Source of the DNA: Harmothoe impar
Taxonomy: Eukaryota > Annelida > Polychaeta > Phyllodocida > Polynoidae
Direction: 5' to 3'
NCBI GenBank assembly: GCA_947462335.1
Contig: OX381717.1
Span: forward strand, 15,057,166-15,121,165
DNA length: 64,000 nucleotides
Shown: one piece after another, positions 1 to 63,110 of the stretch
How positions within the stretch are numbered: the stretch's first letter is position 1
Layout: each line of letters starts with the position of its first letter
The notes under the pieces: generated by a model
Database searches by the model: none
What the model was told of the DNA's origin: nothing
The model's input: the letters and a program-made list of their open reading frames with translations, nothing else
Position numbers and translations under genes: made by a program

Positions 1-860
1 TTTTGATGATGGCCCTCTTGCTGATGTGGTCTTCCTGGACATCCAATGGCTGGTTGACCAATTTAAGAAGGTCATCACAATCACCGAGGCCCACCAGGAT
101 GATCCTGAGAACTCTAAATACTGGGCAGACCTAGACCAGAAGGGCATCCTTCATCAAAAACTGGTAGAGAGTCTATGGCCTGATAAAGAGATGAGAGACA
201 AGCTTCTCAGTACCATGCTGAAGTTCTCTCTACTCATGCCTGCTCCAAAGTACTATGTGGAGAACAGCAAGACTGCAGTGGCAGAGAAGCCCTATCTGGT
301 CCCATCGTTGCTGCCTGCAGGGGTCGGGGAAGTACCAGAAAAGGGCAAGGTCATCAGGCTTTGTCCCAACCAGGGTTTCCTCCCCATCGGTCTGTTCAGC
401 CGACTGATCACAAGTTTGTCTGTAGATCACAACTGGGAGGTGTGTGGGCAAATATTCCAGCATTCTGCTACCTTCAAGTTGAATCACCACTCTGCCTCAA
501 AGATCAGCATCCAGAGATGTGCATCAGAAAAACCTAAAGGGATTGAGGTGATAGAAGTGGCTTTTCAAAAAGGAACGAACCCAACAGCAAGTAATGAGCA
601 GAGAGACATACTGGCTGCCATGGCACAATCTCTTGGTCACCTTCCCGGTAGTTCTGGATTTGGTGTCTGGGTTTCTTGCTCAACGTGTTTCCAGTGGAAC
701 TTCATATGCGATCTTCGGGAGTATAACGACAGCCGGATCTATGACAGAAATGTCTGTGAAAGGCATGGTCCAGTACTGAAGAAGTCAGACCATGCTACTT
801 GGTTCTGTAAAGTGGCAAACGACACAGAAGTTGCAGGGTCTGCGCAAAGGAAGGACACTG
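1..860 (+). CDS. Exon 1 (partial): C-terminal COR domain of a ROCO protein
   Basis: The frame is open from base 2. The segment from position 50 (WLVDQFKKVIT), through a winged-helix-like stretch (GILHQKLVESLW, then LLSTMLKFSLLMP) to YLVPSLLP, is the characteristic C-terminal half of the COR domain that follows Roc GTPases. The later part has a GLFSRLI segment and Cys-containing strands usual after COR. The exon ends at the donor GTAAGT (861), leaving one nucleotide of a split codon. COR mediates dimerisation and couples the GTPase cycle to effector domains in ROCO proteins. The 5' end lies outside the window, and the open-frame start at 26 (GTG) is not an initiation codon. Confidence 0.75.
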
Positions 861-963
861 GTAAGTAGACAAGGAAAATACTCTTCAAGTTCAAATGATA
901 CAAAAATAAATTACATCGTCCTTACACAGAATGTGATACTCATGTATATTTTGTCCATTCCAG

Positions 964-31057: not shown

Positions 31058-31405
31058 TAGAGGGGCCAGTATAGAGGGGCCCCATTTGGAGGGCCCAATA
31101 TTGAGGGCCCAGTATTGCGGAACCCATTATTGAGGAACGCAGTATCGAGGGGCCCAGTATAGAAGGGCCCAGTATCGAGCGGCCCAGTGTTGACGGGCCC
31201 AGTTTCGAGGGGCCCAGTATCCAGGGGCCCAGTATCCAGGGGCCCAGTATCCAGGGGCCCAGTATCCATGGGTCCAATATCCAGGGGCCCAATATCCAGG
31301 GGCCCAGTATCCAGGGGCCCAGTATCCAGGGGCCCAGTATCCAGGGGCCCAGTATCCAGGGGCCCAGTATCCTTGGGCCCAGTATCCAGGGGCCCAGAAT
31401 TGAGG
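31058..31405. repeat. 15-bp minisatellite GGGCCCAGTATCCAG
   Basis: About 23 units, degenerate at the left and nearly perfect from about 31198. The 15-bp period keeps all frames open (Trp-Ile-Leu-Gly-Pro type on the minus strand), which is compositional. Confidence 0.95.
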
Positions 31406-37572: not shown

Positions 37573-38445
37573 GTAGGTATTTTATTTCACATATATTCCC
37601 TGGAATGAAAATACACGTAAAATTTGAACTGCAACCAAACTTTCAATGAGGGTTTCCCAAGGGCTGACTTAGCTCCAAAGATACCTGGTAGTGTGATGGA
37701 TATGGGTTATTTTTTCTAGCCTATTGGGAGGATTTGACATACACCTATATTCTGTATTTTCTAGAGGTCAGCCCCTTCATGATATCTAGGGCTGGTACAC
37801 AAGTTGATAAAGTAATTGTTTAGAATAAAAAAGCATCCTGTCACAGCTGATTGAAAACATATAGATAAAGATCTTAATGTACCAAATCTTTTGCTTCCTA
37901 GACAAGGAAATGTAATGCATTAGAATGAAACTTAGATGGTTTTTTTATTAGAGAGTAGACCTATAATATGATTTTTGAGTAGAGAGTAGGCTATAACAGG
38001 TTGGTTATATTGTGCATTGATCAAAATGGATATTCTTAAAATTTACACCAAAGTGGGTAATTCTACTAACATTCTGCTTACCGTAATGTCCCACCGGCAT
38101 TAATGCGACATTGAGAAGAATAGGCCTGGGTCCTGAAAAAGTGAAGGATTTGATTCATATGTTGCTTACTAGCCCAGAACATCGAGAGGAGAAATGGTTT
38201 ACATTGTTATGACAGGAATTACATATCATGTGCATTAGCATGTATTCAATATGATTAAAAGCGTAGGCAGTAGTGAAGGAGAAAGTTGTGAATATCTCAA
38301 TGGGGTGGTGCATCAATACATATATATGTGCATTATAACAATATCATATACGTTTAATTTCTCTGTTGCATTTAAGTGTGTTTGCCTTAAAAGGGCTCCT
38401 GCATTGGAAAGTGTTTGGTATGATTGTGTATTGAATCAATAATAG
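37573..38445 (+). other. Intron 5' of the retroelement insertion
   Basis: AT-rich intron between LRR exon B and the LTR element; no other feature is seen. Confidence 0.6.
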
Positions 38446-38929
38446 TGTAGGGGCATGATATTACATATTAATCTCATACACGGTATTTCCGGGTAACGTC
38501 TGTTTACTCGGCTTCCCCACCTGGAGCTAGTGCACACAGTTCCCGGGAGAGGGCGCAGGTCCTCTTCAGGTGACCGTGTGCCGCTCTCAGGTGGGCGGCC
38601 GACCCACCCACCTGGCCACGTGACCTAAGAGCCGGTGTTATATAAGACCCATGTGTTTACCTGGAACGGCAGTCAGTGCAGGCCCGACTGACGAGAGACT
38701 TCACATGTCCAACCGTGCGGACAGAGTTGTATGCTAAGAGTTGTATACTGACCGTTTCCTCTATTTATAGAGAAACCTGATCTACCTGTGTGTATTAATT
38801 CTACACTGATCGTTCCCTAGTAAAGGAACTAGAGTTGTTATTCTTGTGAATAAAGACAGATATATTCTCGCACCTGGAAACTGCCGTGATCGTTGTTCTT
38901 TAACCTAGAGTTAACTACGAACCACCACA
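38446..38929 (+). repeat. 5' LTR
   Basis: 484 bp, starting TGTAGGGG and ending ACCACCACA. It contains CACGTG (38617-38622), a TATA box TATATAAG (38639-38646) and a polyadenylation signal AATAAA (38849-38854), giving a clear U3-R-U5 order. Confidence 0.97.
38639..38646 (+). promoter_or_regulatory. LTR TATA box
   Basis: TATATAAG lies 16 nt downstream of an E-box CACGTG. Transcription would start about 25-30 nt downstream, near 38670. The same box in the 3' LTR (51153-51160) could drive transcription into the host intron toward LRR exon C. Confidence 0.75.
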
Positions 38930-38930
38930 C

Positions 38931-38942
38931 TGGTGCCGTGAC
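38931..38942 (+). promoter_or_regulatory. Primer binding site, tRNA-His type
   Basis: TGGTGCCGTGAC, one base after the LTR, is the complement of the conserved 3' end of animal tRNA-His (…GTCACGGCA plus CCA) over 12 nt. The following bases diverge. Confidence 0.8.
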
Positions 38943-39048
38943 CAGTAGCAGTGAAGGTAGCAGAACAAGCTAGTTGTTCGAGAATATGTTCGGGTTATAC
39001 TGAACAGGAAGTCCTTGAGTGGACAGGCAGTCCTTTAGTGGACGGACA

Positions 39049-41589
39049 ATGGCTACCGGTGGTAGCCTGGGCGGCTCTGGCCCAGAGCTGAGTGAAGGGG
39101 AGTTGGAATCAACTCGCCTGGAGGTGCCAGGGTTGGACCCTGGGGAGGGCTTGAAGCCAGAGCAGAAGAAGAGGAAATTGCAGGATCTTTCCTGGGTGGA
39201 ACCCTATGTAGGGGATGAGAGATTCCAGAGGGAATATGACGAGCGTTTGGCCCGGGAAGAGGATGACCTCTACTGGGAAAATGTCCGATTGGACAAGCAG
39301 TCAATGGAAGATCAGTATGCTGCATTGACTGAGGAATTGACTTCCCTGGTAAAAGAAAGGGATGAGATCCTCTCTGAGAATCAGAGGGTAAAAGGAACTC
39401 TGATAGAAGAGAGAGAACGGTTGATAGAGGACAACCGGTATATGAAAAAGAAGGTTGCTCAGGAATCGCATGAATACCAAAAGATTCAGGCAAAGATTGC
39501 TGAGAACCAGAAGGAGAATGACCATTCAGAATCTCTTAAGGAGAGGTATGAGAGGGAGTTGAAAAAATACTCCAGGGAATGGTATGCCCTGAAGAAGGGG
39601 ACAGAGGAGCTTGAGAAGGGCAGAGACCAGCTGGTCAAAGATAACGAATCCACCAGGATGCAAATCCTGGAGGAAACGGAAGAGTTAGAAAGGAAACGGA
39701 AAGCTGAGGTAGAAGCTGTCTGTTCCCTGGAAGCCAGAAAAACGCTCCTACGGGGTGAATTATCAAAGGCATTGGAAAAACAGGGGAAGGAACAGGTTCC
39801 AGCTGTCAGGCCGGAAACTGTTCCGGATAGTACTCCTACTACTAGTAAGGGGGAAGCATTACCTCAATTCGATCCATTTATTAATGATAATGGATTGAGG
39901 AATGTGGAAGACTCTGTGTATAAAAACAGAGAGAAAGATTCAAGGAGAGTGAATGTTACCGGGCGCTCTCTTGGATGGGAACCAGTTAATCATGCCAGTA
40001 ATGGTCCGGTTAACAGGGAAATGTCTCCGGAGGAGGAAGTGTCTCGACATTATAAAAATGAATTTCGAGATGAAGTGGTGAACCATAGTTATGGCTCATT
40101 GAACCCCTTTGCGGGAGATGACCCGGCTCTATATGGGAATCCGGGAGGGTATGATAGCAAGGGTAATTATAGGTATTGCCCAGATGCAACTTATTCGTAC
40201 CCACCTCCGGCCACGGAAACACACTCGGGAATCAATAAAGATCCTGAGATTAGGCCGAGGGATAGGATGAATAAGGGGACCCAACCGGGAACAAAGGGAA
40301 GGTCAAACCTGGTGCATAAAAACACTGAGGGACTGTCAGGCTATCAAGGCCCACGCTTTGATGAGGGTTCAGAATCTGAATCAGATAAATCATCTGACGA
40401 TGTACCCAAGAGAAAGGTTCCTTTGAACCGACGGGTCACAATGACCCCGGCGGAGCACCGATTACATAATCGAGACCCCGCCATAGGTAATTTGGGACTA
40501 GATTGCTCTAGCCGAGGTCAAGACGGTACAGACCTACTGGCTTGGAGTAGACGCATGTCGGGTCAATTAGTGCATTCTAATTATGCCGCTAAAAGAACTG
40601 CACGTGTGACTAAGCCTTACAGGGGTTTACGACCCTGGAAGGAAGAATATCAATCACTTCTAGATGATTGTAAGTACAATTGCTGGAACAAGGAGGAATC
40701 CTTGGGAGCTTTTGTGATTTGGTTGAGTGACGGGCCGGGTAAGATAGTGGTTGAAGAATGGAGGGACACTTACGGGCCGGAAGCTACATACGACCAGCTG
40801 GAAGTATTAGCTTGTTATACCTTTGGGAAAATGGTGACAGTAGATCACTGGACTCTGTTTCAGAGAAGAACGCAGAAACCAAAGGAATCTGCTAAAATTT
40901 TTGGGCTGGAATTGCAGCGATTATTGCGGCAGGCTAGGCCAGAATGGAGTAGGGATGCTGAATATTACATAGAATCCCTATTTGTAAGATTTATTAGTGG
41001 ATTAAGTGATCCCGAACATGCTAAAGTTTGTGGTAGAGCTTGGGAAGCTGGGTCTTCCCTAGCAGATTTGTTCATGGCGATTGATCAACATGACAAGAAG
41101 AAGATACTGTTGGCTGGTATGATACCCGCTAAAAGGGGGCAGCGCGTCTCTGGAATTGAACATTCCTTAGATGGAGACGATTCTTCCGCGGAAGAATCTG
41201 AAGGGGAGGAAAGAGTAGACGCCCTTAAATTCAAGGGTCGACAGAAATCTAACTCAACCCCAGCTTCCGGGAAACTTCCTAGTAACAAAGGTTATTCGGA
41301 AACCCCCCGGAAACCCGACATTCTGGAGCCTCAGACTGAACCCAGTCAGAGAACCCAGACCCCGGAGACGACCACTCCGGATAAAACAAATGCGTCAGGA
41401 AACTCATTAAATACCTTAATGGAGTCCATGATTAAACGCATGAACGAGGTGTTTGATAATCAAACCAGGCGCCGCCCTAGGGTCGATCGTAACACCGTCC
41501 AGTGTTACAGATGTCAAGTCAAAGGGCACTTTGCATCTGAATGCAAAGCCGAGAAACCTGTTTTAAGAAGTGAGGTTTCGGGAAATTAG
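39049..41589 (+). CDS. gag: Retrotransposon gag
   Basis: 846 codons from the ATG at 39049; the frame is open 30 nt further upstream but without an ATG. Residues about 70-235 form a long charged coiled coil (LIEERERLIEDNRYMKKKV). A low-complexity region follows. A capsid-like helical segment spans residues about 520-680 (RPWKEEYQSLLDDCKYN ... FVRFISGLSDPEH). A CCHC zinc knuckle starts at residue 819 (CYRCQVKGHFASEC, CX2CX4HX4C). Gag would assemble particles and bind RNA. The long N-terminal coiled coil is larger than in most gypsy Gags. The stop is TAG, directly after a slippery heptamer. Confidence 0.9.
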   Translation: MATGGSLGGSGPELSEGELESTRLEVPGLDPGEGLKPEQKKRKLQDLSWVEPYVGDERFQREYDERLAREEDDLYWENVRLDKQSMEDQYAALTEELTSLVKERDEILSENQRVKGTLIEERERLIEDNRYMKKKVAQESHEYQKIQAKIAENQKENDHSESLKERYERELKKYSREWYALKKGTEELEKGRDQLVKDNESTRMQILEETEELERKRKAEVEAVCSLEARKTLLRGELSKALEKQGKEQVPAVRPETVPDSTPTTSKGEALPQFDPFINDNGLRNVEDSVYKNREKDSRRVNVTGRSLGWEPVNHASNGPVNREMSPEEEVSRHYKNEFRDEVVNHSYGSLNPFAGDDPALYGNPGGYDSKGNYRYCPDATYSYPPPATETHSGINKDPEIRPRDRMNKGTQPGTKGRSNLVHKNTEGLSGYQGPRFDEGSESESDKSSDDVPKRKVPLNRRVTMTPAEHRLHNRDPAIGNLGLDCSSRGQDGTDLLAWSRRMSGQLVHSNYAAKRTARVTKPYRGLRPWKEEYQSLLDDCKYNCWNKEESLGAFVIWLSDGPGKIVVEEWRDTYGPEATYDQLEVLACYTFGKMVTVDHWTLFQRRTQKPKESAKIFGLELQRLLRQARPEWSRDAEYYIESLFVRFISGLSDPEHAKVCGRAWEAGSSLADLFMAIDQHDKKKILLAGMIPAKRGQRVSGIEHSLDGDDSSAEESEGEERVDALKFKGRQKSNSTPASGKLPSNKGYSETPRKPDILEPQTEPSQRTQTPETTTPDKTNASGNSLNTLMESMIKRMNEVFDNQTRRRPRVDRNTVQCYRCQVKGHFASECKAEKPVLRSEVSGN

Positions 41590-42821
41590 AGGGGGTTACC
41601 GGGGATGGCAGGACGGTAACCCCTGAGGAAATATGTCAGATTATCACCGACGTTGGCGGTGAAGATTCATTAGCAGTGAATGCGTCCAGCAAGAAGGGAG
41701 ATGGGACCGTACATCCCGGAAACCATGAGGCTGGGGAGACTGGTACAACAGGCGCCCAGGGGTGCGCGTATGGGAAACCTAGTGCCAGTTTAGAGGAGTC
41801 AATAACCAAAGAGTTGGTTAAGGTTGGAGGAACCAGGCTTCCCCCGGGTCATCCTTGTCTGGAACACCTGAAAGGATGTGATTTCGACCTGGGCACTGAT
41901 AGTGACCTTCACCGGTTTACTAGGAATCCCTCAGTAACTGATGGGAAGAGGTGGTACGTTTCCTGTTCTGTACAAGGAAAGACTGGGGAGTTTCTTATGG
42001 ATACTGGAGCTAGCCACTCCATGGTCTCTAAGAGATTCATCAGCTTATTGCCGAATATGTGTGAGAACCTCACAATGAGGGTAAACGCATGTACGGCCGA
42101 TGGTACCAGAATGAGGACATTTGGACGGACTTTTCTGATAATCTCTGTGGCCGGGAAAGAATTTGTTTGGGCCCCGACCATAGCTGAGATTGAAGATGAT
42201 GGTATTCTTGGTTTGGATTTTGCGGCGCTTTTCGGTGCGACTTTGAATCCGAAAAGTGGGAAGTTGAAAATTGAATACCCGTATGATATGACCATACTCT
42301 GTAAGTTGAGAGTGATAAGTAGTGTCGCTAGTGTGGCACAGACTGTGAAGATTCCCCCGGGAATGACCTGTGACGTGTTAGTCAGTTCAGGGAGGCTAAT
42401 CCAGAAAGGATTAGCGGTAATCGAGCCGGATATGGCTGTATTATCCCGGAAGGGATTGGAATCTGCGGATACCCTAGTAGGGAATTCCAGATGGACAGTG
42501 ACACCCATTTCCAACCCCGGAAACTCCACAGTATATCTTGAGAAAGGCACTGAAGTTGGGAAAGTGATACTTGCGGAGGCAGTCACCGGTAGCCACCAAG
42601 ACCTGAGGTTAGAAGAAGGAGGGGAAGAGGAATTGCATGAAGAGTTAACTAAGTTGTTAACAGGATCGTCCATAACGGATGAGAATGATCAGGAAGCCCT
42701 AAAAGCTATGCTGAAGAGATGCAGGCAAGCTTTTGCGGCCCCAGGGGAACCCCTGGGGAGAACCAATAAGGTATTGCATGAAATTAAAACCGGGGATAAC
42801 CCCGCTTTTGAGATTCCTTAA
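41574..42821 (+). CDS. pro: Retrotransposon aspartic protease (pro)
   Basis: The open frame is -1 relative to gag, entered by the frameshift; there is no good initiating ATG. The active-site motif is FLMDTGASHSMVS (Asp codon 42000-42002) and the second motif DDGILGLDFAALFGA near 42200, both typical of retropepsins in Ty3/gypsy elements. The C-terminal part runs toward the RT but meets TAA at 42819-42821; the same frame continues as pol immediately after it. The protease would cut Gag and Pol during particle maturation. Confidence 0.85.
   Translation, partial: GFGKLEGVTGDGRTVTPEEICQIITDVGGEDSLAVNASSKKGDGTVHPGNHEAGETGTTGAQGCAYGKPSASLEESITKELVKVGGTRLPPGHPCLEHLKGCDFDLGTDSDLHRFTRNPSVTDGKRWYVSCSVQGKTGEFLMDTGASHSMVSKRFISLLPNMCENLTMRVNACTADGTRMRTFGRTFLIISVAGKEFVWAPTIAEIEDDGILGLDFAALFGATLNPKSGKLKIEYPYDMTILCKLRVISSVASVAQTVKIPPGMTCDVLVSSGRLIQKGLAVIEPDMAVLSRKGLESADTLVGNSRWTVTPISNPGNSTVYLEKGTEVGKVILAEAVTGSHQDLRLEEGGEEELHEELTKLLTGSSITDENDQEALKAMLKRCRQAFAAPGEPLGRTNKVLHEIKTGDNPAFEIP
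41580..41624 (+). promoter_or_regulatory. -1 ribosomal frameshift signal (gag-pro)
   Basis: The heptamer G GGA AAT (41580-41586, gag frame) fits X XXY YYZ exactly and abuts the gag stop TAG. After a 5-nt spacer, GGGGTTACC (41592-41600) and GGTAACCCC (41615-41623) form a perfect 9-bp stem with a 14-nt loop, extended by one G-U pair. A shift of -1 enters the protease frame, open from 41574. Confidence 0.85.
42819..42821 (+). other. In-frame TAA between pro and RT
   Basis: A single stop lies in an otherwise continuous frame. The following residues (RRLPLKKKIVAEEEI) match the segment just before RT in gypsy polyproteins, so the stop is inside a conserved region rather than a natural domain end. 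Confidence 0.85.
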
Positions 42822-45797
42822 AGGAGGTTACCCCTCAAGAAGAAGATTGTAGCTGAGGAAGAGATAGCGAAAATGCTGAAGGATAATGTTATTGTTCCCA
42901 GCATGAGCCCTTGGTCCTCCCCTGTGTGTATGGTAACCAAGAAGGACGGTAGCATACGGTTCTGTATTGATTACCGGAAACTGAATGGGTTGACTAAGAA
43001 GAACTCCTATCCTCTTCCTAGGATAGATGAGACGATTGATTCCCTGGGAGGGAATGAATGGTTTTGTACCCTGGATTTACAGTCCGGGTATTGGCAAGTA
43101 GGCATGAAGCCTGAAGATATGGAGAAAACCGCGTTTTCTAGCCATATTGGGTTGTTTGAATATAAGGTAATGCCGTTCGGGTTATGTAACGCGCCGGCCA
43201 CCTTTGAAGCCATGATGGAGACGCTGTTAAGTGATTTATTATGGCGGAAATGTCTAGTTTACTTGGATGACGTAATCGTGTTTGGAAAGACCTTTGCGGA
43301 TTGTTTAAGTAATTTGGAAGAAGTCTTAAACCGAATCATGTCTAACGGTCTCAAATTGAAACCAAAGAAATGCAATCTGTTTAAGAAGGATATTAACTAC
43401 CTAGGGCGGATTATTTCCACCGAGGGGGTCAAGGCGGATCCGGAAAAGATCAGGAGTGTGACTGAATGGGAAGTCCCCAGGGGTCCTAAAGATGTGCGAT
43501 CCTTTCTAGGATTCTGCTCATACTATAGGGATTTCCTGCCGGGGTATTCCCGGGTAGCCTATCCGATCCAGTGTTTGTCACACTGGACACCCGGAAATAG
43601 GAAGGAGGAGTTCCCATGGGGGAGGGAACAGGACACAGCTTTCTTAGCAATAAAAAAGTTGTTTGTAGAGACCCCGGTGTTAAAGTATCCCACCCCGGAT
43701 GGTCATTTTGTATTGGATACAGATGCTAGCAATGAGAGTATTGGGGCCGCCCTCAGTCAAGTCCAAGGCGGAGTGGAGGTTCCCATTGCCTTTGCTAGTA
43801 ATACTATGAGTAAGACCCAGCGTAATTACTGTACCACTAAAAGGGAATTGTTGGCTGTGATAGTTTATACTAAAAAGTTCAAACATTTCCTTTGGGGGTC
43901 CGATTTTACGCTAAGAACAGATCATTCCTCTTTGAGATGGTTATTGAATTTCAAAGATGCGGAAGGAATGATTGGACGTTGGCTAGCACACCTTTCCGAG
44001 TTCGGTTTGGAGCAAAGTCAGATCCAGCATAGAGCTGGGGTAAAGCATGTAAATGCTGATGCACTTTCCCGACGTCCTATCAGGAAGTGCGAAAACACCA
44101 ACTGTGATGACTGTGGTCAGCATGAAGCTGTCATAGCCGGAGCAAGGATTCCCTTTGAGATCAAGGGAACTGGGGTTCTGGAGTGGTCCATGGGAACCAT
44201 CCGGAAATTCCAGGAAAAGGATCCTAACCTTAGCCGGTTGTTGGTATTGTTACCTAGGAAGATACGGCCCCCGCGGCCTGAGATTTCCCTGGAGAATCGG
44301 GAAATGAGACGACTAATAGCTCAATGGGCAGAGCTAGAGGTCCAGAGCGGAATCATCTACCGGTGGAAGATTAATTCATCCGGTAGGAGAGTCCGGCAAG
44401 TGGTAATACCTTCCGGTATGAGGAGGGATGTTATGTATTATTGCCATGGACACCTGACCAGTGGACATTTCGGAAAAAAACGTTCCCTGGAACGTCTGAA
44501 AAGGAGATATTACTGGCCAGGGATGAGTAGTGATCTATTAAGATGGATTGCTACTTGCCCGGATTGTTGTAAAAACAAACCTGGGCCTGGGATGGGTAAA
44601 ATGCCTTTGTCTCAGGAGTTGTTTGGTGTAAGATTTGCGCGAGTCGCCATAGATATTATCAGTGGGTTTAAAACTACCCCTGAGGGTAATACTTGTATGA
44701 TGGTCGTCACTGACTATTATACTAAGTATACGAGAGTGTTTCCATTAGCGGATCACAAAGCAGCAACCTGTGCAAAAGCTTTTGTTAAAGGTTGGGTATT
44801 GCATCTTGGGGTTCCCCTAATGATGCATAGTGACCAAGGTCGGGAATTTGAATCTGATCTTTGGCAGGAAATGTGTCACCGACTGGCGATTTGTAAGACG
44901 AGAACAAATCCCTATCGGCCACAAAGTGATGGAATGGTTGAGAGATTCAATCGTACATTGATTCAGGTGTTGAAATCCCTGGTGAATGATAGAATGGATG
45001 ACTGGGATGAGCAGTGTGATTATGTATGCCATGCATATAATAGCACTGTCCATTCTAGTACTTCCTGTTCCCCGAATCTATTAGTTTTCGGGGAAGATTT
45101 GATAATGCCCGCGGATCTGGTATTCGGGGTGGTTGGAATGAACCCGGAAACCCCCTGCCATGTGATGTTTGTGGAGTCATTAAGAGATCAATTCAAATAT
45201 GCTTATGAATTGGTGAGAACTGAACTGCAGAAGAATGCTACCTGGCAGAAGACCGGCTATGATCTAGGCCTTAAGCCGCGACGATTCAAAGTTGGTGATC
45301 AGGTAGTAAGATTACATGAGCCGTTATCGACTCTGAAACTTGCTAGTAATTGGGACGGCCCCTTTGTGGTTACCCGCATAGTAAGTGACAGTACTGTAGT
45401 GATACGTTCATTACAAGGAAAGATGTATAAATCTAATGTAGCTCGACTAAGAGAGTGGAAGGGGAGAGATTTGTCCCTGGACTCGTATGAGTTGGAAGTT
45501 GATACTTTGATAGAGGAAAGTGAACAGCGGAAATCAGTGAAGGAACCTCCCCGGAAACGCGGGAGGCCGCGGAAGGAGGTTTCCCGGAAACTAATGGTGC
45601 AGAAGTCCGTCATCCCAAAAAGATCCGGGAAGAAGGCGGCTAATAAAGTCTCGCTGGCTGAAGGGAAAAGGACCCGGAAGAGTGTGGTTAAGGCTAAATC
45701 CACTCTGGAAAAAGCGTGTCCTAGAACCAGGTCTAATGTTATGCCTAAAAACATAAGACGCAGTCCCCGGTTACTAGCCAGGGACGGTATAACCTAA
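42822..45797 (+). CDS. pol: Retrotransposon pol: RT, RNase H, integrase
   Basis: 991 codons after the in-frame TAA. RT: WSSPVCMVTKKDGSIRFCID near codon 30 and the YLDD catalytic box at codons 147-150. RNase H: LDTDAS near codon 298 and RTDHSSLRWLL near codon 367. Integrase: an HHCC zinc-binding segment (HGHLTSGHFG ... CPDCC) and the catalytic triad D611, D671, E707 with exact DX35E spacing. A GPY/F-type module follows (GPFVVTRIVS, near 846). There is no chromodomain; the tail is basic with an AT-hook (RKRGRPRK, near codon 912). Domain order is Ty3/gypsy. All key catalytic residues are present, so only the stop upstream compromises it. Confidence 0.92.
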   Translation, partial: RRLPLKKKIVAEEEIAKMLKDNVIVPSMSPWSSPVCMVTKKDGSIRFCIDYRKLNGLTKKNSYPLPRIDETIDSLGGNEWFCTLDLQSGYWQVGMKPEDMEKTAFSSHIGLFEYKVMPFGLCNAPATFEAMMETLLSDLLWRKCLVYLDDVIVFGKTFADCLSNLEEVLNRIMSNGLKLKPKKCNLFKKDINYLGRIISTEGVKADPEKIRSVTEWEVPRGPKDVRSFLGFCSYYRDFLPGYSRVAYPIQCLSHWTPGNRKEEFPWGREQDTAFLAIKKLFVETPVLKYPTPDGHFVLDTDASNESIGAALSQVQGGVEVPIAFASNTMSKTQRNYCTTKRELLAVIVYTKKFKHFLWGSDFTLRTDHSSLRWLLNFKDAEGMIGRWLAHLSEFGLEQSQIQHRAGVKHVNADALSRRPIRKCENTNCDDCGQHEAVIAGARIPFEIKGTGVLEWSMGTIRKFQEKDPNLSRLLVLLPRKIRPPRPEISLENREMRRLIAQWAELEVQSGIIYRWKINSSGRRVRQVVIPSGMRRDVMYYCHGHLTSGHFGKKRSLERLKRRYYWPGMSSDLLRWIATCPDCCKNKPGPGMGKMPLSQELFGVRFARVAIDIISGFKTTPEGNTCMMVVTDYYTKYTRVFPLADHKAATCAKAFVKGWVLHLGVPLMMHSDQGREFESDLWQEMCHRLAICKTRTNPYRPQSDGMVERFNRTLIQVLKSLVNDRMDDWDEQCDYVCHAYNSTVHSSTSCSPNLLVFGEDLIMPADLVFGVVGMNPETPCHVMFVESLRDQFKYAYELVRTELQKNATWQKTGYDLGLKPRRFKVGDQVVRLHEPLSTLKLASNWDGPFVVTRIVSDSTVVIRSLQGKMYKSNVARLREWKGRDLSLDSYELEVDTLIEESEQRKSVKEPPRKRGRPRKEVSRKLMVQKSVIPKRSGKKAANKVSLAEGKRTRKSVVKAKSTLEKACPRTRSNVMPKNIRRSPRLLARDGIT

Positions 45798-46274
45798 GCC
45801 GGTACACAACGAGTGTGGTGTCCTGTAATCTTGTTAAATATTTAAATGTTGTAATCAGTTATGTGTGGAAGTAAGTACGGTCGGAATGATCGTGATAGTC
45901 CCCCTGTCAAGGATCCCATGGGTGATGGACGGATAATCCGGTGAATGTGCTTTATTATGCCATTCATATATATTTCATTGATACTCTCGACGAGTTGACA
46001 GAGCGTAAGGATTAACACGTGGAATAAGGGTACCTGTTTACAATTGAACGCGCGGTGACCTGGTTCCAAGGAACTGGGTCACGGGACGCGCGGGGTTGCG
46101 CATGCGCGGTGGCGCGCCTTATATAAGGCCCGCGGAGCGGCGGGAATCGCCAGTTGGGGTTGAGAGGCGGTCCAGAGCAGACGTGAGAGCTCGGACACGA
46201 CCATTGTCGCTGTGGGGAGGTGGATCCCCTATAAATCCATCAACAAACACTTTTCTTGAGTGTGATACAAAAAC
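45798..46274 (+). promoter_or_regulatory. Pol-ORF3 spacer with internal promoter-like region
   Basis: The last 190 bp are GC-rich. TGCGCATGCGCG (46097-46108) is a perfect NRF-1-type palindrome, followed 11 nt later by TATATAAG (46120-46127), the same TATA octamer as in the LTR. ORF3 starts about 150 nt downstream. No splice acceptor of obvious strength was seen just before ORF3. Confidence 0.65.
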
Positions 46275-47144
46275 ATGTCCTCCGAGACAGACCACCAACA
46301 GGTGGACCCTCTTCAAGAGGGCGACTCCGCTAGCGGAGGAAATGAGGTTGTTAATCAACCTGACCTCGTGGACCAGGAATCTCTGGATTTCCTGGGACAA
46401 GGGGAGATAATGGACGTCGACGCTGACTCTCAGTCACCGCTTCGCCCTGCTAATGTCGCCGCCAATTACTTGGAAGGTCTAGACATTGAGGCCATCAGCC
46501 CTGCTGACGGTCGCGCTGATACCGGTGAGGCTGAGTATCAGGATCCGGGTCTATTGTACCATGGAGAACCGCCGGCGGACGTTGAAAAACCCCGCCCGGC
46601 CGTACCAACACTAGGAGGCTTCATGTCCAATTACGATGGACGTGAAGTAGAACTGCACGAGGACGTGCTAAGACTCACGGCGGAGGGAGCTCCCCGCCGG
46701 ATAGACCCGCTCACGAGCCAGGCGATATTGCTCTTCCTGTTAGTGGAGGAGCAGGAGGAGATGCCCCCGGACTGGTTTGTGTACTGGGAGGCACTCCAGA
46801 AAGGACTACGCGTATGCTACTGCTTACGACGAGCTGTCTTCGATTTGCATATCGCAGACATAAAGCGGTTAATGCCCGCACTCCCAATTCTGTCTCTGGA
46901 CCCGAATTGTGGAGTTGCCGGGATGTTGTTGACTGGCGTCAACAGATACCGGGCGCGAATCGGGAAACTCCGAGAGCCGAAAACCCGGAAGGAGTACGAG
47001 ATTGCTGCCGCTAATACGCAGGGGGTAGTTTCGTATGTCCTGGATGTAGCCACTATTGAAGACTACATGGATTCTCACAACGTCAAACGAGATATTGCCA
47101 TATCTTGTTTGGTTGATGAGGCGGTTCGTACAGTACGAACCTGA
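46275..47144 (+). CDS. ORF3, 5' part (before in-frame TGA)
   Basis: 289 codons from ATG 46275. The N-terminus is acidic and low in complexity. Residues about 120-280 look globular (LTSQAILLFLLVEEQEEMPP, WFVYWEALQKGLRV, LPILSLDPNCGVAGMLLTGV). No signal peptide, furin-like site or membrane anchor, so not env. I do not recognise the family. It ends at TGA 47142-47144, after which the same frame stays open for 782 more codons. Confidence 0.7.
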   Translation: MSSETDHQQVDPLQEGDSASGGNEVVNQPDLVDQESLDFLGQGEIMDVDADSQSPLRPANVAANYLEGLDIEAISPADGRADTGEAEYQDPGLLYHGEPPADVEKPRPAVPTLGGFMSNYDGREVELHEDVLRLTAEGAPRRIDPLTSQAILLFLLVEEQEEMPPDWFVYWEALQKGLRVCYCLRRAVFDLHIADIKRLMPALPILSLDPNCGVAGMLLTGVNRYRARIGKLREPKTRKEYEIAAANTQGVVSYVLDVATIEDYMDSHNVKRDIAISCLVDEAVRTVRT

Positions 47145-49490
47145 TCTTCCAGTGCGGAGGAGAAGGCGCGAATAAAAGCGCTGAAAGCCACACCTAGGGG
47201 GCGCGGCAGTAAAGGTGAGAGGGGGGCCTCAAACCGGTCAAGCTCGGCCGACAGTAACCAGTCGGACGAGTTTGTCCAGGAGAGAGGACGTCAGGCTCGC
47301 CGGAACGAGAAGGCAAGATTAGCTAACTTGCCGGACTCTGTATTAGCAGAGGGATTACCGGAACAACCTTCCGGAGGACAGCCCGTTATTCCCCGGGCTG
47401 AGGAGGTAACGGATGAGGCTATGGACATAAACGAAGCCAATACTCCGGCGCCCTCCAACACCAACACCACCACCACCACCCCGGCCCTTGTGGCAGATAT
47501 GACCGCCGCCGCGGGAGCAGCGGCCGCCGTGGCGGCTGCGCTGGTATTTAATCCAGCACGTCTCAGCCCTCTCCGTAGTCCGGCTCATTCGGATCCGGAA
47601 GAGGGAGAGGTTCCGGCTAACGCTGAGGAACCAGGAAATGCCCCAGAGGACCCCATCCCGCCTAATGACGTGATGAGGCGGATCTGGCAGAACGCGAACA
47701 ATAAGTTCCGCGTGTTTATTCCCAATTCATGGGAACAGTGTCCGATTGGTCCTACCAATTTCGGATGTCCACTTGCGATCAACTGTAAAGATCAGAGTGA
47801 CGATGAGGATTGGATCCGGAATACCCCCCGGGACCGTCCTCCGTCTGCTTTTTATCAGCAGTGGCTAGATCAACTCAGGATCCTGCCGGATACTTACTAT
47901 AGTAAGGAGCAGAAAGAAAAACTTCTTTTTGCGATTAACCGCTGGTATAGCCAACGGGAAAGAAACTGGTGCCCATTCGCTACGTGTGTAAACACGATTG
48001 GCACAGACAGAACCGTGTTTGTAACAAAGCAACGGTTTCTGCGTCACCTCTGTGAAAATCACATGCACCACTGTGTGGTGTACCACTGTGATATCACAGT
48101 AGGTAGGGAGTCCCAGCTGTGTAACGGGTGTTTAGAACCCCGGAGAGGTGAGCTCATGCGCCACATGAAGGATTGCCATAACATGGGAATCAGTGTAGCT
48201 CGCAATCGTGTGAATGCGCTACATGATGCCGTATGTGACCAGTACAAGTCACTCACGGAGGAACAGAAGGCTAAGATCCGGCCGGCAACTCCCTTCTACT
48301 GCGAGGTCGCAGATGGGAAGTTCAAAGCCAGGATTGCCAGAGTGGACGGACGACATAAGTTCGCCATGAATGACGAGGAATATACGGTGTTATGCACTAC
48401 CCGTACTTCCCGCAGAGGTGGCGGTAGTTTCCGTCAGCCGGAAACCCGGGGTAGTTCCCGGGGGAAGAGCCGGTCCGCCCGCGACCGCTCTCGATCTCCT
48501 GCGGTCTCACCTGGACCAAAACGGAGACATGCCGGATCCAATTTGGAGGATCTCGATAATTCCTACTATGGGATTTATCATGCCCCGGAAGGTCGCGACT
48601 ATTATCGCGAGTATCCAGACCCGCTGTTTACAGACCGGAAAGATCGGAAACGTGATTCCGGTGGTCAAGCGGCGGCGACTAACATGGATTACCGTTCTAG
48701 ACGTCTGAGCAGTTCAGACAGTGCCAACAGTCAACCTGACTGTGGAGGTGCCCGGCCTAAAGAACCGGCTACCAGAACAAAGGCTTCCCTGCCTTTGACG
48801 TACCATCTGGGGACAACTGCAAAGCTAACCCCCAGGGACGTCCGGTCACCCACTACCCCAACTCGGGACATGCAGGGCTTGACCGTGAAAGCTGAACCAA
48901 AATCACTAATCTCAGTGGTAACGCCTCGGGGCATAACTGTCCCGAAGGCTGCAGCGGTTGCGAAAACGCCGCAAGCGGATGTTAAACCCGTGATTCCTGC
49001 AGCCCAGGAGCCGGTTGTCATCCAGCCAGTCGCGGGCACCTCCCGCACGGAAACTACCGGTGGCGTAAAGTTAAAATACGTCCCGATAGTCAACTACTTC
49101 TCTAGGGAAGAGAAGGCGAGCTGCGAAGTGGGACAGAGAATTGTAACAGAATTCCAGGAGTCCCAACGCGAGCTGGCGGTGGAGTATAACACCAAAATGT
49201 TAGGCCTGTTCACGCATGGCCTAAAGATTGCCCACCGGGAGGAGAAAGCATTGGTCGCTGTCGGCAATGCTGACTACTTGGCTAAAAAGTCAAGGGAAGC
49301 TGCTTCAGGCCAAAAGACTGCTGAGGCCGCCGCAGGGTTCGTTCAGCAAGAGAACGAGAAGTTAACCAAACGGTTACAGGACATGAACGTAAAATTTTAC
49401 GGGGTGTTCGGCGTGACTATCGATACCTGGGATGGCACAACTGAGCACGCGCTTGCTTTAATGAGGGCAAGAGATGAACCTTTAGGTTAA
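47145..49490 (+). CDS. ORF3, 3' part: zinc-finger and SR-rich protein
   Basis: Same frame as the preceding part, separated only by TGA 47142; if read alone its first ATG is 47421. Counted from 46275, codons about 566-640 hold clustered Cys/His: CPFATC with HLCENH, then HCVVYHC and CNGC with HMKDCH, suggesting two C2H2-type fingers. Codons about 710-755 are Arg/Ser-rich with a basic cluster (SRSARDRSRSPAVSPGPKRR), a likely nuclear signal. The C-terminus ends with a short coiled coil (FVQQENEKLTKRLQDMN). A nucleic-acid-binding, nuclear role is inferred; no known retrotransposon ORF is recognised. Confidence 0.65.
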   Translation, partial: SSSAEEKARIKALKATPRGRGSKGERGASNRSSSADSNQSDEFVQERGRQARRNEKARLANLPDSVLAEGLPEQPSGGQPVIPRAEEVTDEAMDINEANTPAPSNTNTTTTTPALVADMTAAAGAAAAVAAALVFNPARLSPLRSPAHSDPEEGEVPANAEEPGNAPEDPIPPNDVMRRIWQNANNKFRVFIPNSWEQCPIGPTNFGCPLAINCKDQSDDEDWIRNTPRDRPPSAFYQQWLDQLRILPDTYYSKEQKEKLLFAINRWYSQRERNWCPFATCVNTIGTDRTVFVTKQRFLRHLCENHMHHCVVYHCDITVGRESQLCNGCLEPRRGELMRHMKDCHNMGISVARNRVNALHDAVCDQYKSLTEEQKAKIRPATPFYCEVADGKFKARIARVDGRHKFAMNDEEYTVLCTTRTSRRGGGSFRQPETRGSSRGKSRSARDRSRSPAVSPGPKRRHAGSNLEDLDNSYYGIYHAPEGRDYYREYPDPLFTDRKDRKRDSGGQAAATNMDYRSRRLSSSDSANSQPDCGGARPKEPATRTKASLPLTYHLGTTAKLTPRDVRSPTTPTRDMQGLTVKAEPKSLISVVTPRGITVPKAAAVAKTPQADVKPVIPAAQEPVVIQPVAGTSRTETTGGVKLKYVPIVNYFSREEKASCEVGQRIVTEFQESQRELAVEYNTKMLGLFTHGLKIAHREEKALVAVGNADYLAKKSREAASGQKTAEAAAGFVQQENEKLTKRLQDMNVKFYGVFGVTIDTWDGTTEHALALMRARDEPLG

Positions 49491-50948
49491 AAAGACTAAT
49501 AAAAGGTTTTGAGTCTATTTCTAATTCTTTTAGGAATAGAGGAGGGAACTATAATAGTTTCCGGATAGATTAATTGTTGTTTCATTTAATCTGACGTCAT
49601 AAATTGTTTATGACGGGGTATCCCTTTTTGAGGGGAGGGGCATCTTTTTAGAGGCATATGGATCAACGCGGGGGGAACCTTCCGTGGAAGCTCTGGACTT
49701 ACCTAACTACTCAACTCTCAACTATAGCCTACCGATGGGGAATCAGGACTCCACCGGGAAGCTACCAAACTAAAGTCCCTGAAACTAACTTTTGGGATAC
49801 GTTACCATGATGTGTTCCTGATACTATTATGCTGAGTTATAAACTGTTCCCGTCCAAAGGATTACGTGTCAAACAGACAATGCTCGTGGTTCCAGATCTA
49901 CTTATATATTTCATGAACATTCCTGGAGCTAGGATTACGTGTTAAACGGACAGTACTCGTGGTTTCCAGCCGGATTATAGTTATATATGCCATGAACTTT
50001 ACTGGAGCGAGGACGGGATACTTATCGAGCTGTATATATATGAACTTACCTTCGGGTGATATTTATCCAAGAAACAGTATTAAGAAGAGGAGAGCACCTC
50101 ACTCATTCGTCTATTAGAAGCGGAGAGCACCTTGACCACAACTAGATCACCAGTAAGCTATATTTAATTGTAAGGGTTTCCGGGTACACTGCCAGGTTAC
50201 TCATTAAAACGTTTTTAATATATAAAATATCATTATTATGTGATACATATCACCTCAGGTGTTCCAATAAGGTATTCTCATATTTACCTTATGAATCAGG
50301 TTTCATAATATGCTACATATGAAGATTGTATGATCTGATAAGCTAGGAAACGTGGCTACCCGTAATGTTTATATGAAGTCGTTAAGACTATGTGTATATA
50401 CTAAATATACCGCCAGGTATTGTCGTGTGTGTTGACTCTGTTGTATGTTGCGAGAGATATTAATACTCCGGTTATATAATCGGATTACCCGGCTTAAAAC
50501 AAAGGCTGTGGTTACTGTTATCCATTGTGTGAATGTTTTCATTAAATCACAAATCAATGTAAGACGCTGGTGGTTGTAAGTCCTTATCAGGACTGGTTTT
50601 TAATAACTTTTCTGTTCAACTTAAATATATACACACCCCACGCGCATTTTTTTAAACGAGTAAGGAAACTTCATAAGGAAGTCATATCGAAATGTGTCAA
50701 GCCGTTCGATTGTATGTATGCTATTATATTCACTTGTCATAAAACATACCTAAATCATCTATTATGGTTGCTATTACAGTGTAATGCCATATTTATATTG
50801 AGTTTGATGATCTCGCTTGTGTAGTATGTCGTGTAATATGTTACGCCCCTAGTTACTGTATAGACAATAACTATAAAGTCGTTGTTCTAAAAGGTTTTCT
50901 ATGTACTAGGAAAACAGTATATATGTTCGTTACCACCTAGTTTTGTCT
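49491..50948 (+). other. Retroelement 3' non-coding tail
   Basis: 1.46 kb without long ORFs. It includes a tandem duplication of about 73 bp: GATTACGTGTCAAACAGACA (49861) and GATTACGTGTTAAACGGACA (49934), each followed by CTCGTGGTT and a TATAT-ATGAAC stretch. This may hold packaging or RNA-export structure; the function is unknown. Confidence 0.7.
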
Positions 50949-50959
50949 AGGGGGGGTAG
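50949..50959 (+). promoter_or_regulatory. Polypurine tract
   Basis: AGGGGGGGTAG directly precedes the 3' LTR, the expected plus-strand primer site (with one T). Confidence 0.7.
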
Positions 50960-51443
50960 TGTAGGGGCATGATATTACATATTAATCTCATACACGGTAT
51001 TTCCGGGTAACGTCTGTTTACTCGGCTTCCCCACCTGGAGCTAGTGCACACAGTTCCCGGGAGAGGGCGCAGGTCCTCTTCAGGTGACCGTGTGCCGCTC
51101 TCAGGTGGGCGGCCGACCCACCCACCTGGCCACGTGACCTAAGAGCCGGTGTTATATAAGACCCATGTGTTTACCTGGAACGGCAGTCAGTGCAGGCCCG
51201 ACTGACGAGAGACTTCACATGTCCAACCGTGCGGACAGAGTTGTATGCTAAGAGTTGTATACTGACCGTTTCCTCTATTTATAGAGAAACCTGATCTACC
51301 TGTGTGTATTAATTCTACACTGATCGTTCCCTAGTAAAGGAACTAGAGTTGTTATTCTTGTGAATAAAGACAGATATATTCTCGCACCTGGAAACTGCCG
51401 TGATCGTTGTTCTTTAACCTAGAGTTAACTACGAACCACCACA
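50960..51443 (+). repeat. 3' LTR
   Basis: 484 bp, identical by eye to 38446-38929, with TATATAAG at 51153 and AATAAA at 51363. It is followed by the ATAG duplication and the intron leading to LRR exon C 205 bp downstream. Confidence 0.97.
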
Positions 51444-51648
51444 ATAGCTTGGGTGCCTGCAGCAGCAGTGTTCCTTGGTCAACTTTTCAGCCATTGATTC
51501 TCCTGTTAAAGGTAGTGACCCCCACGTGTGGACCTTAAGGGCTCAAAGGTAATGAATGTCTGTGGTAAAACCCTTTAGGTTCATAAAGAAATATTTGCAT
51601 AGTGTTAACTTGATTTGTGTAAAATATGTCATTACATGTATTTAACAG

Positions 51649-60056: not shown

Positions 60057-60182
60057 CTATTTATGCATGATTTTAATTTAGATGTTTATATTGTAATTGT
60101 ATTGAAAAGTGGTATTTGAGCCCCCATTAAAGCTGATAAGGGGCACCCTGCCCCCCCCCCCTTTTCCTACACCACTGATCAT

Positions 60183-60437
60183 TCTGTACATAGTGTGTGT
60201 GTTATGTACCACAACCTGCCTCAGGTTCTGTCTGCATGGTGCGTCATATCAGACATCCCTGTACTTCTGTACACAGTGTGTGTGTTATGTACCACAACCT
60301 GCCTCAGGTTCTGTCTGCATGGTGCGTCATATCAGACATCCCTGTACTTCTGTACATAGTGTGTGTGTTATGTACCACAACCTGCCTCAGACTCTGTCTG
60401 CATGGTGCGTCATATCAGACATCCCTGTACTTCTGTA
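60183..60437. repeat. 83-bp tandem repeat, three copies
   Basis: Units start at 60183, 60266 and 60349 (TCTGTACATAGTGTGTGTGT) and are almost identical. The recent duplication leaves frames open in places; no gene is inferred. Confidence 0.95.
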
Positions 60438-60578
60438 CGTATTGAAATAGCTAGATGTGGTTTCAGTATAGGTTAAGCTTTTATCTTCATGTGTGTAATT
60501 GTAAGCATGTCATGTTAGATGTGTTATTGTGTGTGTCATTCTGCTGATAACTGACCACTTTCTTGTATCCTGTATCAG

Positions 60579-63038: not shown

Positions 63039-63110
63039 CTGAGACACCGGGACATGAACCTGGGGCCTTCCCCTTGCCAAGCGATTGCTCTACCACTGAG
63101 CTACATCCCC
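63039..63110 (-). repeat. tRNA-Ala-like pseudogene or SINE head
   Basis: On the minus strand: GGGGATG acceptor-like start, box A TAGCTCAGTGG, intact D-arm GCTC/GAGC, a loop TTGGCAA (anticodon GGC, Ala) with mismatched stem, and box-B-like GGTTCATGTCC. The stem mismatches argue against a functional tRNA. Confidence 0.55.

What the first reader, a model, noticed from the sequence alone, without database searches (positions are those of the whole stretch)
46275..49490. Large non-env third ORF with zinc fingers in a Ty3/gypsy element
Downstream of pol, where env would lie, is a frame of about 1,070 codons (one in-frame TGA). It has no signal peptide or membrane anchor but has clustered C2H2-type Cys/His (codons about 566-640), an SR-rich basic segment and a C-terminal coiled coil. 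I know of no standard gypsy ORF of this type. It could be a captured host regulator or a nuclear cofactor for transcription, RNA handling or integration.
Basis: partly seen in the sequence, partly recalled or inferred. Interest (0 to 1): 0.85.

Follow-up and report, generated by a model that had tools for sequence, protein, structure and literature searches.

The report
Jumping gene with self-promoted zinc-finger gene
A very recently active 13-kb jumping gene of the Ty3/gypsy type carries, besides the usual two genes, a large third gene for an unknown zinc-finger-like protein that seems to have its own start switch and is clearly kept working by selection, so such elements may bring along their own regulator.

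Summary
The window carries a 12,998-bp Ty3/gypsy element with identical LTRs, gag, pol and a third ORF at 46275-49490. The in-frame TGA is private to this copy: 56 of 62 scored siblings have an open frame of 1,074 aa or more. ORF3 is under purifying selection (dN/dS about 0.13; 0.05-0.07 in the Cys/His core). It has a full-length homologue (P0001, 1,096 aa, 44-48%), and a sister family carries a remote homologue in the same place (803 aa, 27%, hhalign E 2e-8). Family libraries and PDB gave nothing credible. New here: TATATAAG-N23-CAG, as in the LTR, precedes ORF3 in both families. Most likely ORF3 is an element-encoded, probably nuclear regulator with its own sense promoter, organised like foamy-virus Tas. 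Promoter activity, location and target are inferred. 'SR-rich' and 'coiled coil' are statistically weak; host capture has no support. The one 1,417-type sister copy examined has open pol but has lost most of ORF3, so ORF3 may be dispensable in cis.

The parts
38442..38445 (.). 5' target-site duplication ATAG (partner 51444-51447)
38446..38929 (+). 5' LTR, 484 bp, identical to the 3' LTR; TATATAAG at 38639-38646 and CAG at 38670-38672
38931..38942 (+). primer-binding site TGGTGCCGTGAC (complement of a tRNA-His 3' end; assignment recalled)
39019..41589 (+). gag frame, 856 codons, CCHC zinc knuckle
41574..45797 (+). pol (PR, RT, RNase H, integrase) in the -1 frame relative to gag; one in-frame stop at 42819-42821 private to this copy among those examined
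45798..46274 (+). pol-ORF3 spacer with the candidate internal promoter
46098..46107 (.). GCGCATGCGC palindrome resembling an NRF1 site (motif recalled); identical in the 13 copies aligned (of 39 with some upstream sequence held)
46120..46153 (+). TATATAAG-N23-CAG core-promoter-like motif of the same design as in the LTR; predicted start near 46152
46275..49490 (+). ORF3 (private stop at 47142-47144; 289 + 781 codons here; open frame of 1,074 aa or more in 56 of 62 scored copies)
46590..47141 (+). N-terminal region (codons 106-289), dN/dS about 0.1; mostly helical in a low-confidence model
47685..48419 (+). conserved Cys/His core of ORF3 (codons 471-715), dN/dS 0.05-0.07; C-x4-C...H-x4-H...C...C...H-x4-H at 47970-48179
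48420..48614 (+). basic region with RS/SR dipeptides (weak excess over shuffles)
49050..49487 (+). conserved C-terminal region, possible coiled coil, ending in an FG...W segment shared with the sister family
49491..49800 (+). conserved non-coding stretch after ORF3 with several predicted hairpins
50949..50959 (+). G-rich polypurine-like tract before the 3' LTR (role recalled)
50960..51443 (+). 3' LTR; TSD copy follows at 51444-51447

Best explanation
ORF3 is a conserved accessory gene of a Ty3/gypsy lineage. Shown: it is kept as a working protein of about 1,070 residues by purifying selection, and it is present as a remote homologue in a sister family. Also shown: in both families it lies behind a spacer with a TATA/initiator-like sequence of the same geometry as in the LTR. 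Inferred: a second RNA polymerase II promoter makes a sense subgenomic mRNA for ORF3, ending at the LTR polyadenylation site. Inferred: the protein is soluble and nuclear and uses its Cys/His fingers to bind the element's own DNA or RNA. In that way it would raise or tune output from the LTR promoter, or the fate of the full-length RNA. In organisation this is a two-promoter circuit like foamy virus IP/Tas, reached independently.
For: Selection: dN/dS 0.11-0.14 between subfamilies in the printed pairs with dS above 0.25 (dS up to 0.77), pN/pS 0.13 within 26 young copies; 0.05-0.07 in the Cys/His core. Homology: P0001 at 44-48%; sister family L083 at 27% over the core plus a separate C-terminal match, hhalign probability 95%, E 2e-8; the ordered Cys/His pattern, written after seeing the sequences, fits all 3. 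Linkage: 21 of 23 sister-family pol copies of the 1,415-aa type have a listed ORF3 starting 697-699 bases beyond the pol match (coordinates); 13 of 13 pieces fetched at the fixed distance upstream of window-type ORF3s (10 young copies, 3 of other subfamilies) contain the protease frame. Promoter: TATATAAG-N23-CAG in both spacers, in the window's LTRs and in what I read as the sister's 3' LTR; 0 of 20,000 dinucleotide shuffles of either spacer give it. The motif was derived from the window, so only the sister spacer is an independent test. The window has 6 plus-strand TATATAAG; the 3 followed by N23-CAG are the two LTRs and this site.
Against: No RNA or protein data. Low divergence upstream of the TATA box equals or undercuts that of pol, so it is no proof of a promoter footprint. 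At other spacings from 15 to 35, 0-3 TATATAAG-CAG pairs occur in window plus L083, against 5 at 23. One copy with an open ORF3 (L011) has lost the stretch from TATA to CAG. The one 1,417-type sister copy examined, with open pol, has lost most of ORF3 and has no TATATAAG before the remnant. 29 of 120 listed pol hits are at least 66% identical but only one ORF3 hit exists, so many pol relatives may lack a recognisable ORF3, or their contigs stop short. Nuclear location and nucleic-acid binding rest on composition and Cys/His spacing. Structure models were unusable (pLDDT 40 and 37).
Confidence: 0.55

Rival explanations
1. ORF3 is a real accessory protein but is translated from a spliced LTR transcript, like env or the bdelloid ORF3s; the TATA motif is not used.
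For: Bdelloid ORF3s are described as typically separate transcriptional units expressed from spliced messages (passage of PMC5408684). L011 keeps an open ORF3 without an intact TATA-to-CAG stretch. A pyrimidine-rich TTTTCTTGAG just before the ATG could serve as an acceptor.
Against: The exact motif recurs in the sister family's spacer although the two ORF3s are only 27% identical, and in 0 of 20,000 shuffles of either spacer. The candidate acceptor AG is changed in L011.
Confidence: 0.25
2. ORF3 acts at the RNA level (export, splicing control or packaging, Rev-like), with the hairpin-rich stretch after the ORF as its target.
For: Basic region; a conserved non-coding stretch at 49491-49800 with predicted hairpins in 9 aligned copies; folding z-score -2.5 for 390 nt.
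Against: Covariation is slight: 3 of 82 predicted pairs change on both sides, and the covariation term is +0.22. The RS/SR excess is weak.
Confidence: 0.25
3. ORF3 is a self-encoded restrainer of copy number or an anti-silencing factor, as Ty1 p22 restrains Ty1.
For: Ty1 makes its inhibitor from an internal promoter (passages of PMC5834202). ORF3 divergence is about 2-7 times that of pol at silent sites, as might fit an arms race.
Against: The families with intact ORF3 have at least 150 and 56 scored copies, both capped lists, which does not look like strong restraint. dN/dS stays low, with no sign of positive selection.
Confidence: 0.12
4. ORF3 is a captured host gene.
For: Higher G+C (54% against 47%) and CpG content than gag-pol.
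Against: No credible relative in Pfam, NCBIfam, PHROGs or PDB, and one hit (P0001) in a collection of about 5.8 billion proteins, of which the 7992 candidates sharing most words were scored; that collection seems to hold few animal genes. The copies whose upstream flank was read or aligned lie behind pol.
Confidence: 0.08
5. ORF3 is an env-like or fusogen-like protein.
For: Position after pol; one Ala-rich hydrophobic 19-mer.
Against: No N-terminal hydrophobic segment, no stretch above 1.4 in L083 ORF3, and Cys/His and basic segments instead. The insect sORF2 fusogens are short transmembrane proteins (passages of PMC11952523).
Confidence: 0.03

Closest known systems
Maize Grande gene23 and related plant aORFs (passages of PMC7264820, and PMC11963269)
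   Same: Ty3/gypsy element with an unusually long pol-to-LTR region and an accessory gene for a protein without known relatives, transcribed from its own promoter; the Grande protein is nuclear.
   Different: The plant gene is antisense to gag-pol; the word zinc does not occur in either paper's main text. Here the gene is sense and of a different protein type; sequences were not compared.
Foamy virus internal promoter and Tas (passages of PMC7390438)
   Same: Second promoter inside the element driving a regulatory reading frame, besides an LTR promoter.
   Different: The foamy virus promoter lies within env; transactivation is proven there and untested here. No sequence comparison was made; this is a Ty3/gypsy element without a recognisable env.
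Bdelloid rotifer LTR-retrotransposon ORF3s (passages of PMC5408684)
   Same: Lineage-specific, non-env third ORFs in LTR elements of an animal, with gains and losses.
   Different: Those are GDSL lipases, DEDDy exonucleases, coiled-coil, TM or env ORFs, typically from spliced messages; the word zinc does not occur in that paper.
Ty1i / p22 of yeast Ty1 (passages of PMC5834202)
   Same: An LTR retrotransposon uses an internal promoter to make a trans-acting regulator of itself.
   Different: p22 is a truncated Gag and an inhibitor; ORF3 is a separate protein.
Insect mdg1-group sORF2 (passages of preprint PMC11952523)
   Same: Accessory ORF in insect LTR retrotransposons.
   Different: Short transmembrane protein; transcripts span LTR to LTR without evidence of splicing.

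Membership tests
Ty3/gypsy LTR retrotransposon | LTRs, target duplication, and pol order PR-RT-RNase H-integrase | tested here: met
   identical 484-bp LTRs, ATAG duplication, Pfam PR, RT, RNase H, H2C2 and rve in that order
Ty3/gypsy LTR retrotransposon | placement in a named clade by RT phylogeny | not tested
   no named reference set was at hand; the pol search gave 6495 hits at E <= 1e-100, of which the best 120 were listed, few with names
Env-bearing element (errantivirus/retrovirus-like) | third ORF with signal peptide and transmembrane anchor | tested here: not met
   (hydropathy only): no N-terminal hydrophobic segment; the only borderline stretch is Ala-rich and weaker in L083 ORF3
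Accessory-ORF LTR elements (aORF/ORF3 class) | extra ORF between pol and 3' LTR kept open in many copies and under constraint | tested here: met
   56 of 62, 35 of 42 and 56 of 56 scored copies open (best matches only); dN/dS about 0.13
Elements with an accessory gene under its own promoter (Grande-like, foamy-like organisation) | core promoter sequence directly upstream of the accessory ORF | tested here: met
   TATATAAG-N23-CAG in two families, 0 of 20,000 shuffles each; sequence evidence only, and one copy (L011) lacks it
Elements with an accessory gene under its own promoter (Grande-like, foamy-like organisation) | transcripts starting at that promoter | not testable with these tools
   no RNA data held
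Foamy virus Tas | transactivation of LTR and internal promoter by direct DNA binding | not testable with these tools
   needs reporter and binding assays
C2H2 zinc-finger proteins | significant match to a zinc-finger model | tested here: not met
   no zinc-finger model at E up to 1 (up to 5 for P0001 and L083 ORF3); the only Pfam hit, HPTransfase on the N-terminal piece, has E 0.05 and is below its cut-off
C2H2 zinc-finger proteins | conserved C-x4-C...H-x4-H ligand pattern | tested here: met
   ordered Cys/His pattern in window, P0001 and L083 ORF3 (pattern written after seeing them)
SR protein | RS-repeat domain beyond composition | tested here: inconclusive
   43, 141 and 210 of 1000 shuffles reach the observed count

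The most novel reading that the evidence does not exclude
A lineage of (probably animal) Ty3/gypsy retrotransposons has independently evolved a foamy-virus-like two-promoter circuit. An internal sense promoter with the same TATA-N23-CAG core as the LTR makes a large zinc-finger protein of a new family that switches on the LTR promoter. Its subgenomic RNA may also be co-packaged, so that ORF3 is exchanged between elements near its own start site, which would explain the jump in divergence there.
Probability: 0.25. Interest if true: 0.82.

Novelty: new variant of a known kind. Interest (0 to 1): 0.62.

Why it matters
Gag and pol are generally considered sufficient for LTR retrotransposition (PMC7264820, abstract). 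Here a successful, recently active family spends a quarter of its length on one extra protein that has no recognised relatives and appears to have its own promoter. If the circuit is as inferred, a retrotransposon regulates itself in trans with a dedicated factor, an arrangement known from foamy viruses and, in other forms, from plant Grande and yeast Ty1. It also gives annotators a definable protein family (Cys/His core plus the FG...W C-terminus) that genome pipelines might otherwise call a host gene.

Tried and rejected
Own polyadenylation signal for ORF3: the AATAAA after the window's ORF3 is not kept in the subfamilies, so dropped. Promoter footprint by conservation: first read as proof, withdrawn after finding that the spacer is no more conserved than expected from pol divergence. 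CpG decay as the cause of the faster ORF3: rejected, third-position divergence without CpG sites is still 1.8-2.5 times that of the end of pol. Recombinant origin of ORF3: the pol and ORF3 trees agree on the main clades, so plain swapping from an unrelated source is not shown. Fold search: not run, because both models had mean pLDDT below 40. P0001's own pol: none of the 120 pol hits listed has a longest contig of 12,409 bases, so P0001's linkage to a gypsy pol is unproven. Viral contigs: no ORF3 relative with P0001 as query. Organism: not identified; the cytochrome oxidase search did not complete, and that the host is an animal is only a guess. PMC8220671 (passages) only cites Grande; it describes no such ORF in the passages seen. 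One search used a faulty start pattern and aligned only the window; it was redone.

Full report
What is there. The finding lies in a Ty3/gypsy element of 12,998 bp (38446-51443). The two LTRs of 484 bp are identical and flanked by a 4-bp duplication, ATAG. After the 5' LTR comes TGGTGCCGTGAC, which I recall as the complement of the 3' end of tRNA-His. Gag (39019-41589) has a CCHC knuckle; pol (41574-45797) has protease, reverse transcriptase, RNase H and integrase in that order. Pol overlaps gag in the -1 frame. The host is unidentified; the assembly has 1.51 Gb in 736 contigs.

The third ORF. ORF3 runs from 46275 to 49490 with one TGA at 47142-47144. In the same genome, 62 candidates of 5534 were scored with its C-terminal piece. 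All 62 match at 99-100% identity, and 56 of 62 have an open frame of at least 1,074 aa; the 6 shorter ones include the window copy. A 77-aa query of the fingers gave 150 matches of 150 scored (3638 candidates), all 100% identical; this is a cap, not a count, and by no means all of them have full-length frames. The window's pol stop at 42819-42821 is absent from the 10 young siblings examined; of 3 copies from other subfamilies, 2 have a pol stop elsewhere. So this copy is broken in two genes although its LTRs are identical. These searches rank the best matches first and so favour intact copies.

Selection. Among 34 open copies, the printed pairs of subfamilies with dS above 0.25 have dN/dS 0.11-0.14 (largest dS 0.77), and pN/pS within 26 young copies is 0.13. 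By region, in four pairs, the Cys/His core is tightest (0.05-0.07) and the two variable linkers loosest (0.16-0.31). The protein is made and matters to the element, or did until very recently.

Relatives. The ORF3 C-piece finds one protein, P0001 (1,096 aa, from ENA), in a collection of about 5.8 billion, of which the 7992 candidates sharing most words were scored. P0001 matches both ORF3 pieces along their length (48% and 46% in pairwise comparison). A profile of five sequences found nothing more. Pfam, NCBIfam, PHROGs and PDB gave only sub-threshold scores, the best being E 0.039-0.05 on the N-terminal piece. The collection seems poor in animal genes, so absence there is weak evidence. A viral-contig scan with P0001 found none. 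By contrast the pol query gave 6495 hits at E <= 1e-100, and 29 of the 120 listed are at least 66% identical. Many pol relatives may therefore lack a recognisable ORF3, or their contigs may stop short of it.

A sister family shows that ORF3 is old. I searched the genome with P0039, a pol 56% identical to the window's; 33 copies of 17,020 candidates were scored, 83-84% identical to P0039, in two types of 1,415 aa (23) and 1,417 aa (10). Downstream of one 1,415-type copy (L083) lies an 803-aa ORF with the same layout: SDDEDW, C-x4-C...H-x4-H...C...C...H...H, a basic stretch and a C-terminal FG...W segment. BLASTP against P0001 gives 27% over 244 columns (E 5e-6) and a second match in the C-terminus (25%, E 9e-6). 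Profile comparison gives probability 95%, E 2e-8. 56 of 56 scored copies of this ORF are open at 806 aa (4720 candidates). From the coordinates, 21 of the 23 1,415-type pol copies have a listed ORF3 starting 697-699 bases beyond the pol match, on the same strand; 0 of the 10 1,417-type copies do, but the list is capped at the closest 56.

Result against. Downstream of the one 1,417-type copy examined (L082), with open pol, only the C-terminal remnant of ORF3 is left, and there is no TATATAAG before it. I could not count how many copies share this, because the search did not complete. If many do, ORF3 is dispensable in cis, or supplied by relatives.

A promoter of its own. The spacer before ORF3 holds TATATAAG at 46120, then 23 bases, then CAG at 46151. 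The LTR has TATATAAG, 23 bases, CAG as well. In the sister family the spacer (L083:636) and what I read as the 3' LTR (L083:4447) have the same arrangement; a site in L082 (2334) that I take for its LTR does too. In the window's plus strand 3 of 6 TATATAAG are followed this way, namely the two LTRs and the spacer; on the minus strand 0 of 4. Over window plus L083, spacing 23 has 5 pairs; other spacings from 15 to 35 have 0-3, the 3 being at 27. In 20,000 dinucleotide shuffles of each spacer the full motif appeared 0 times, and TATATAAG alone 147 and 89 times. The motif was derived from the window, so the sister spacer is the independent test. Upstream there is GCGCATGCGC in the window family (identical in the 13 copies aligned, of 39 with some upstream sequence), and ATTGG and GGGGCGGGG in the sister family; I recall these as NRF1-, CCAAT- and GC-box-like. 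I first took the high conservation of the spacer as a footprint. That does not stand: against the window copy, divergence at 45850-46099 is 0.4-3.2% for 9 of 10 copies (7.2% in L011), pol is 2-10%, ORF3 5-30%, and the 3' region mostly 2-18% (43% in one bin of L014). Copy L011 lacks the TATA-to-CAG stretch yet keeps ORF3 open. No polyadenylation signal of ORF3's own is conserved.

A step in divergence. In five copies compared with the window, third-position divergence of ORF3 is 1.7-2.5 times that of the adjacent end of pol, and this is not due to CpG sites. ORF3 dS is 5-7 times that of the protease-RT segment in the four pairs compared (for example 0.72 against 0.10 for L003-L014). The rise begins near the core promoter. 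The trees agree on the main clades. Faster change of ORF3 and exchange of ORF3 between elements both remain possible.

What the protein is like. It is acidic at the N-terminus (charge -13 in the first 50 residues), with two Cys/His clusters, a basic stretch and a conserved C-terminus. It has no N-terminal hydrophobic segment; one Ala-rich 19-mer is borderline (1.76), weaker in L083 (1.37). RS/SR enrichment and the heptad pattern are weak. The two structure models (two sequences each) had mean pLDDT 39.8 and 36.7 and were not used further.

Reading. The best-supported account is a conserved accessory gene with its own sense promoter, coding for a probably nuclear nucleic-acid-binding regulator. 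Gene, selection, homology, linkage and promoter sequence are shown. Transcription start, nuclear location, binding and regulatory effect are inferred.

Comparison. Foamy viruses use an internal promoter for the transactivator Tas (passages of PMC7390438). Maize Grande carries an antisense accessory gene for a nuclear protein with its own promoter (passages of PMC7264820; reference title in PMC11963269). Ty1 makes p22 from an internal promoter (passages of PMC5834202). Bdelloid LTR elements have other ORF3 types (passages of PMC5408684). Eight paper searches looked for such an ORF (two more, 98 and 99, were for foamy virus and Ty1). In their listings I saw no gypsy element described with a zinc-finger ORF3 under its own sense promoter. 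The library lacks most subscription journals, and Repbase entries were not available.

Noticed in passing
window 49491-49800: Conserved non-coding stretch after ORF3 with a run of predicted local hairpins (z -2.5 for 390 nt; slight covariation), a candidate structured 3' RNA element.
   Followed up: partly
window 46100-46150 and copies L009-L018: Rise in divergence between subfamilies near the internal core promoter; ORF3 diverges about 2-7 times more than pol at silent sites. Faster change, or exchange of ORF3 via its subgenomic RNA, are open explanations.
   Followed up: partly
L082:837-1223: Sister element with open pol but ORF3 reduced to its C-terminal remnant; possibly an ORF3-less family living on its relatives (one copy examined).
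   Followed up: partly
window 42819-42821 and 47142-47144: Two stop codons, absent from the young siblings examined, in a copy whose LTRs are identical, so it was broken at or after a very recent insertion, or was copied by helpers.
   Followed up: partly
window 2-868: Open frame resembling a Roc/COR protein (COR-A, E 2.8e-6, below the curated cut-off), followed by an ORF with a long 12-bp repeat (1693-2339) coding for PPHQ/PPQQ.
   Followed up: partly
window 31140-31397 and 60182-60438: Tandem arrays of 15-bp and 83-bp units.
   Followed up: no
window 63039-63110 (-): tRNA match in Rfam (34.2 bits, above gathering) that ARAGORN does not call; possibly a tRNA-derived repeat.
   Followed up: no
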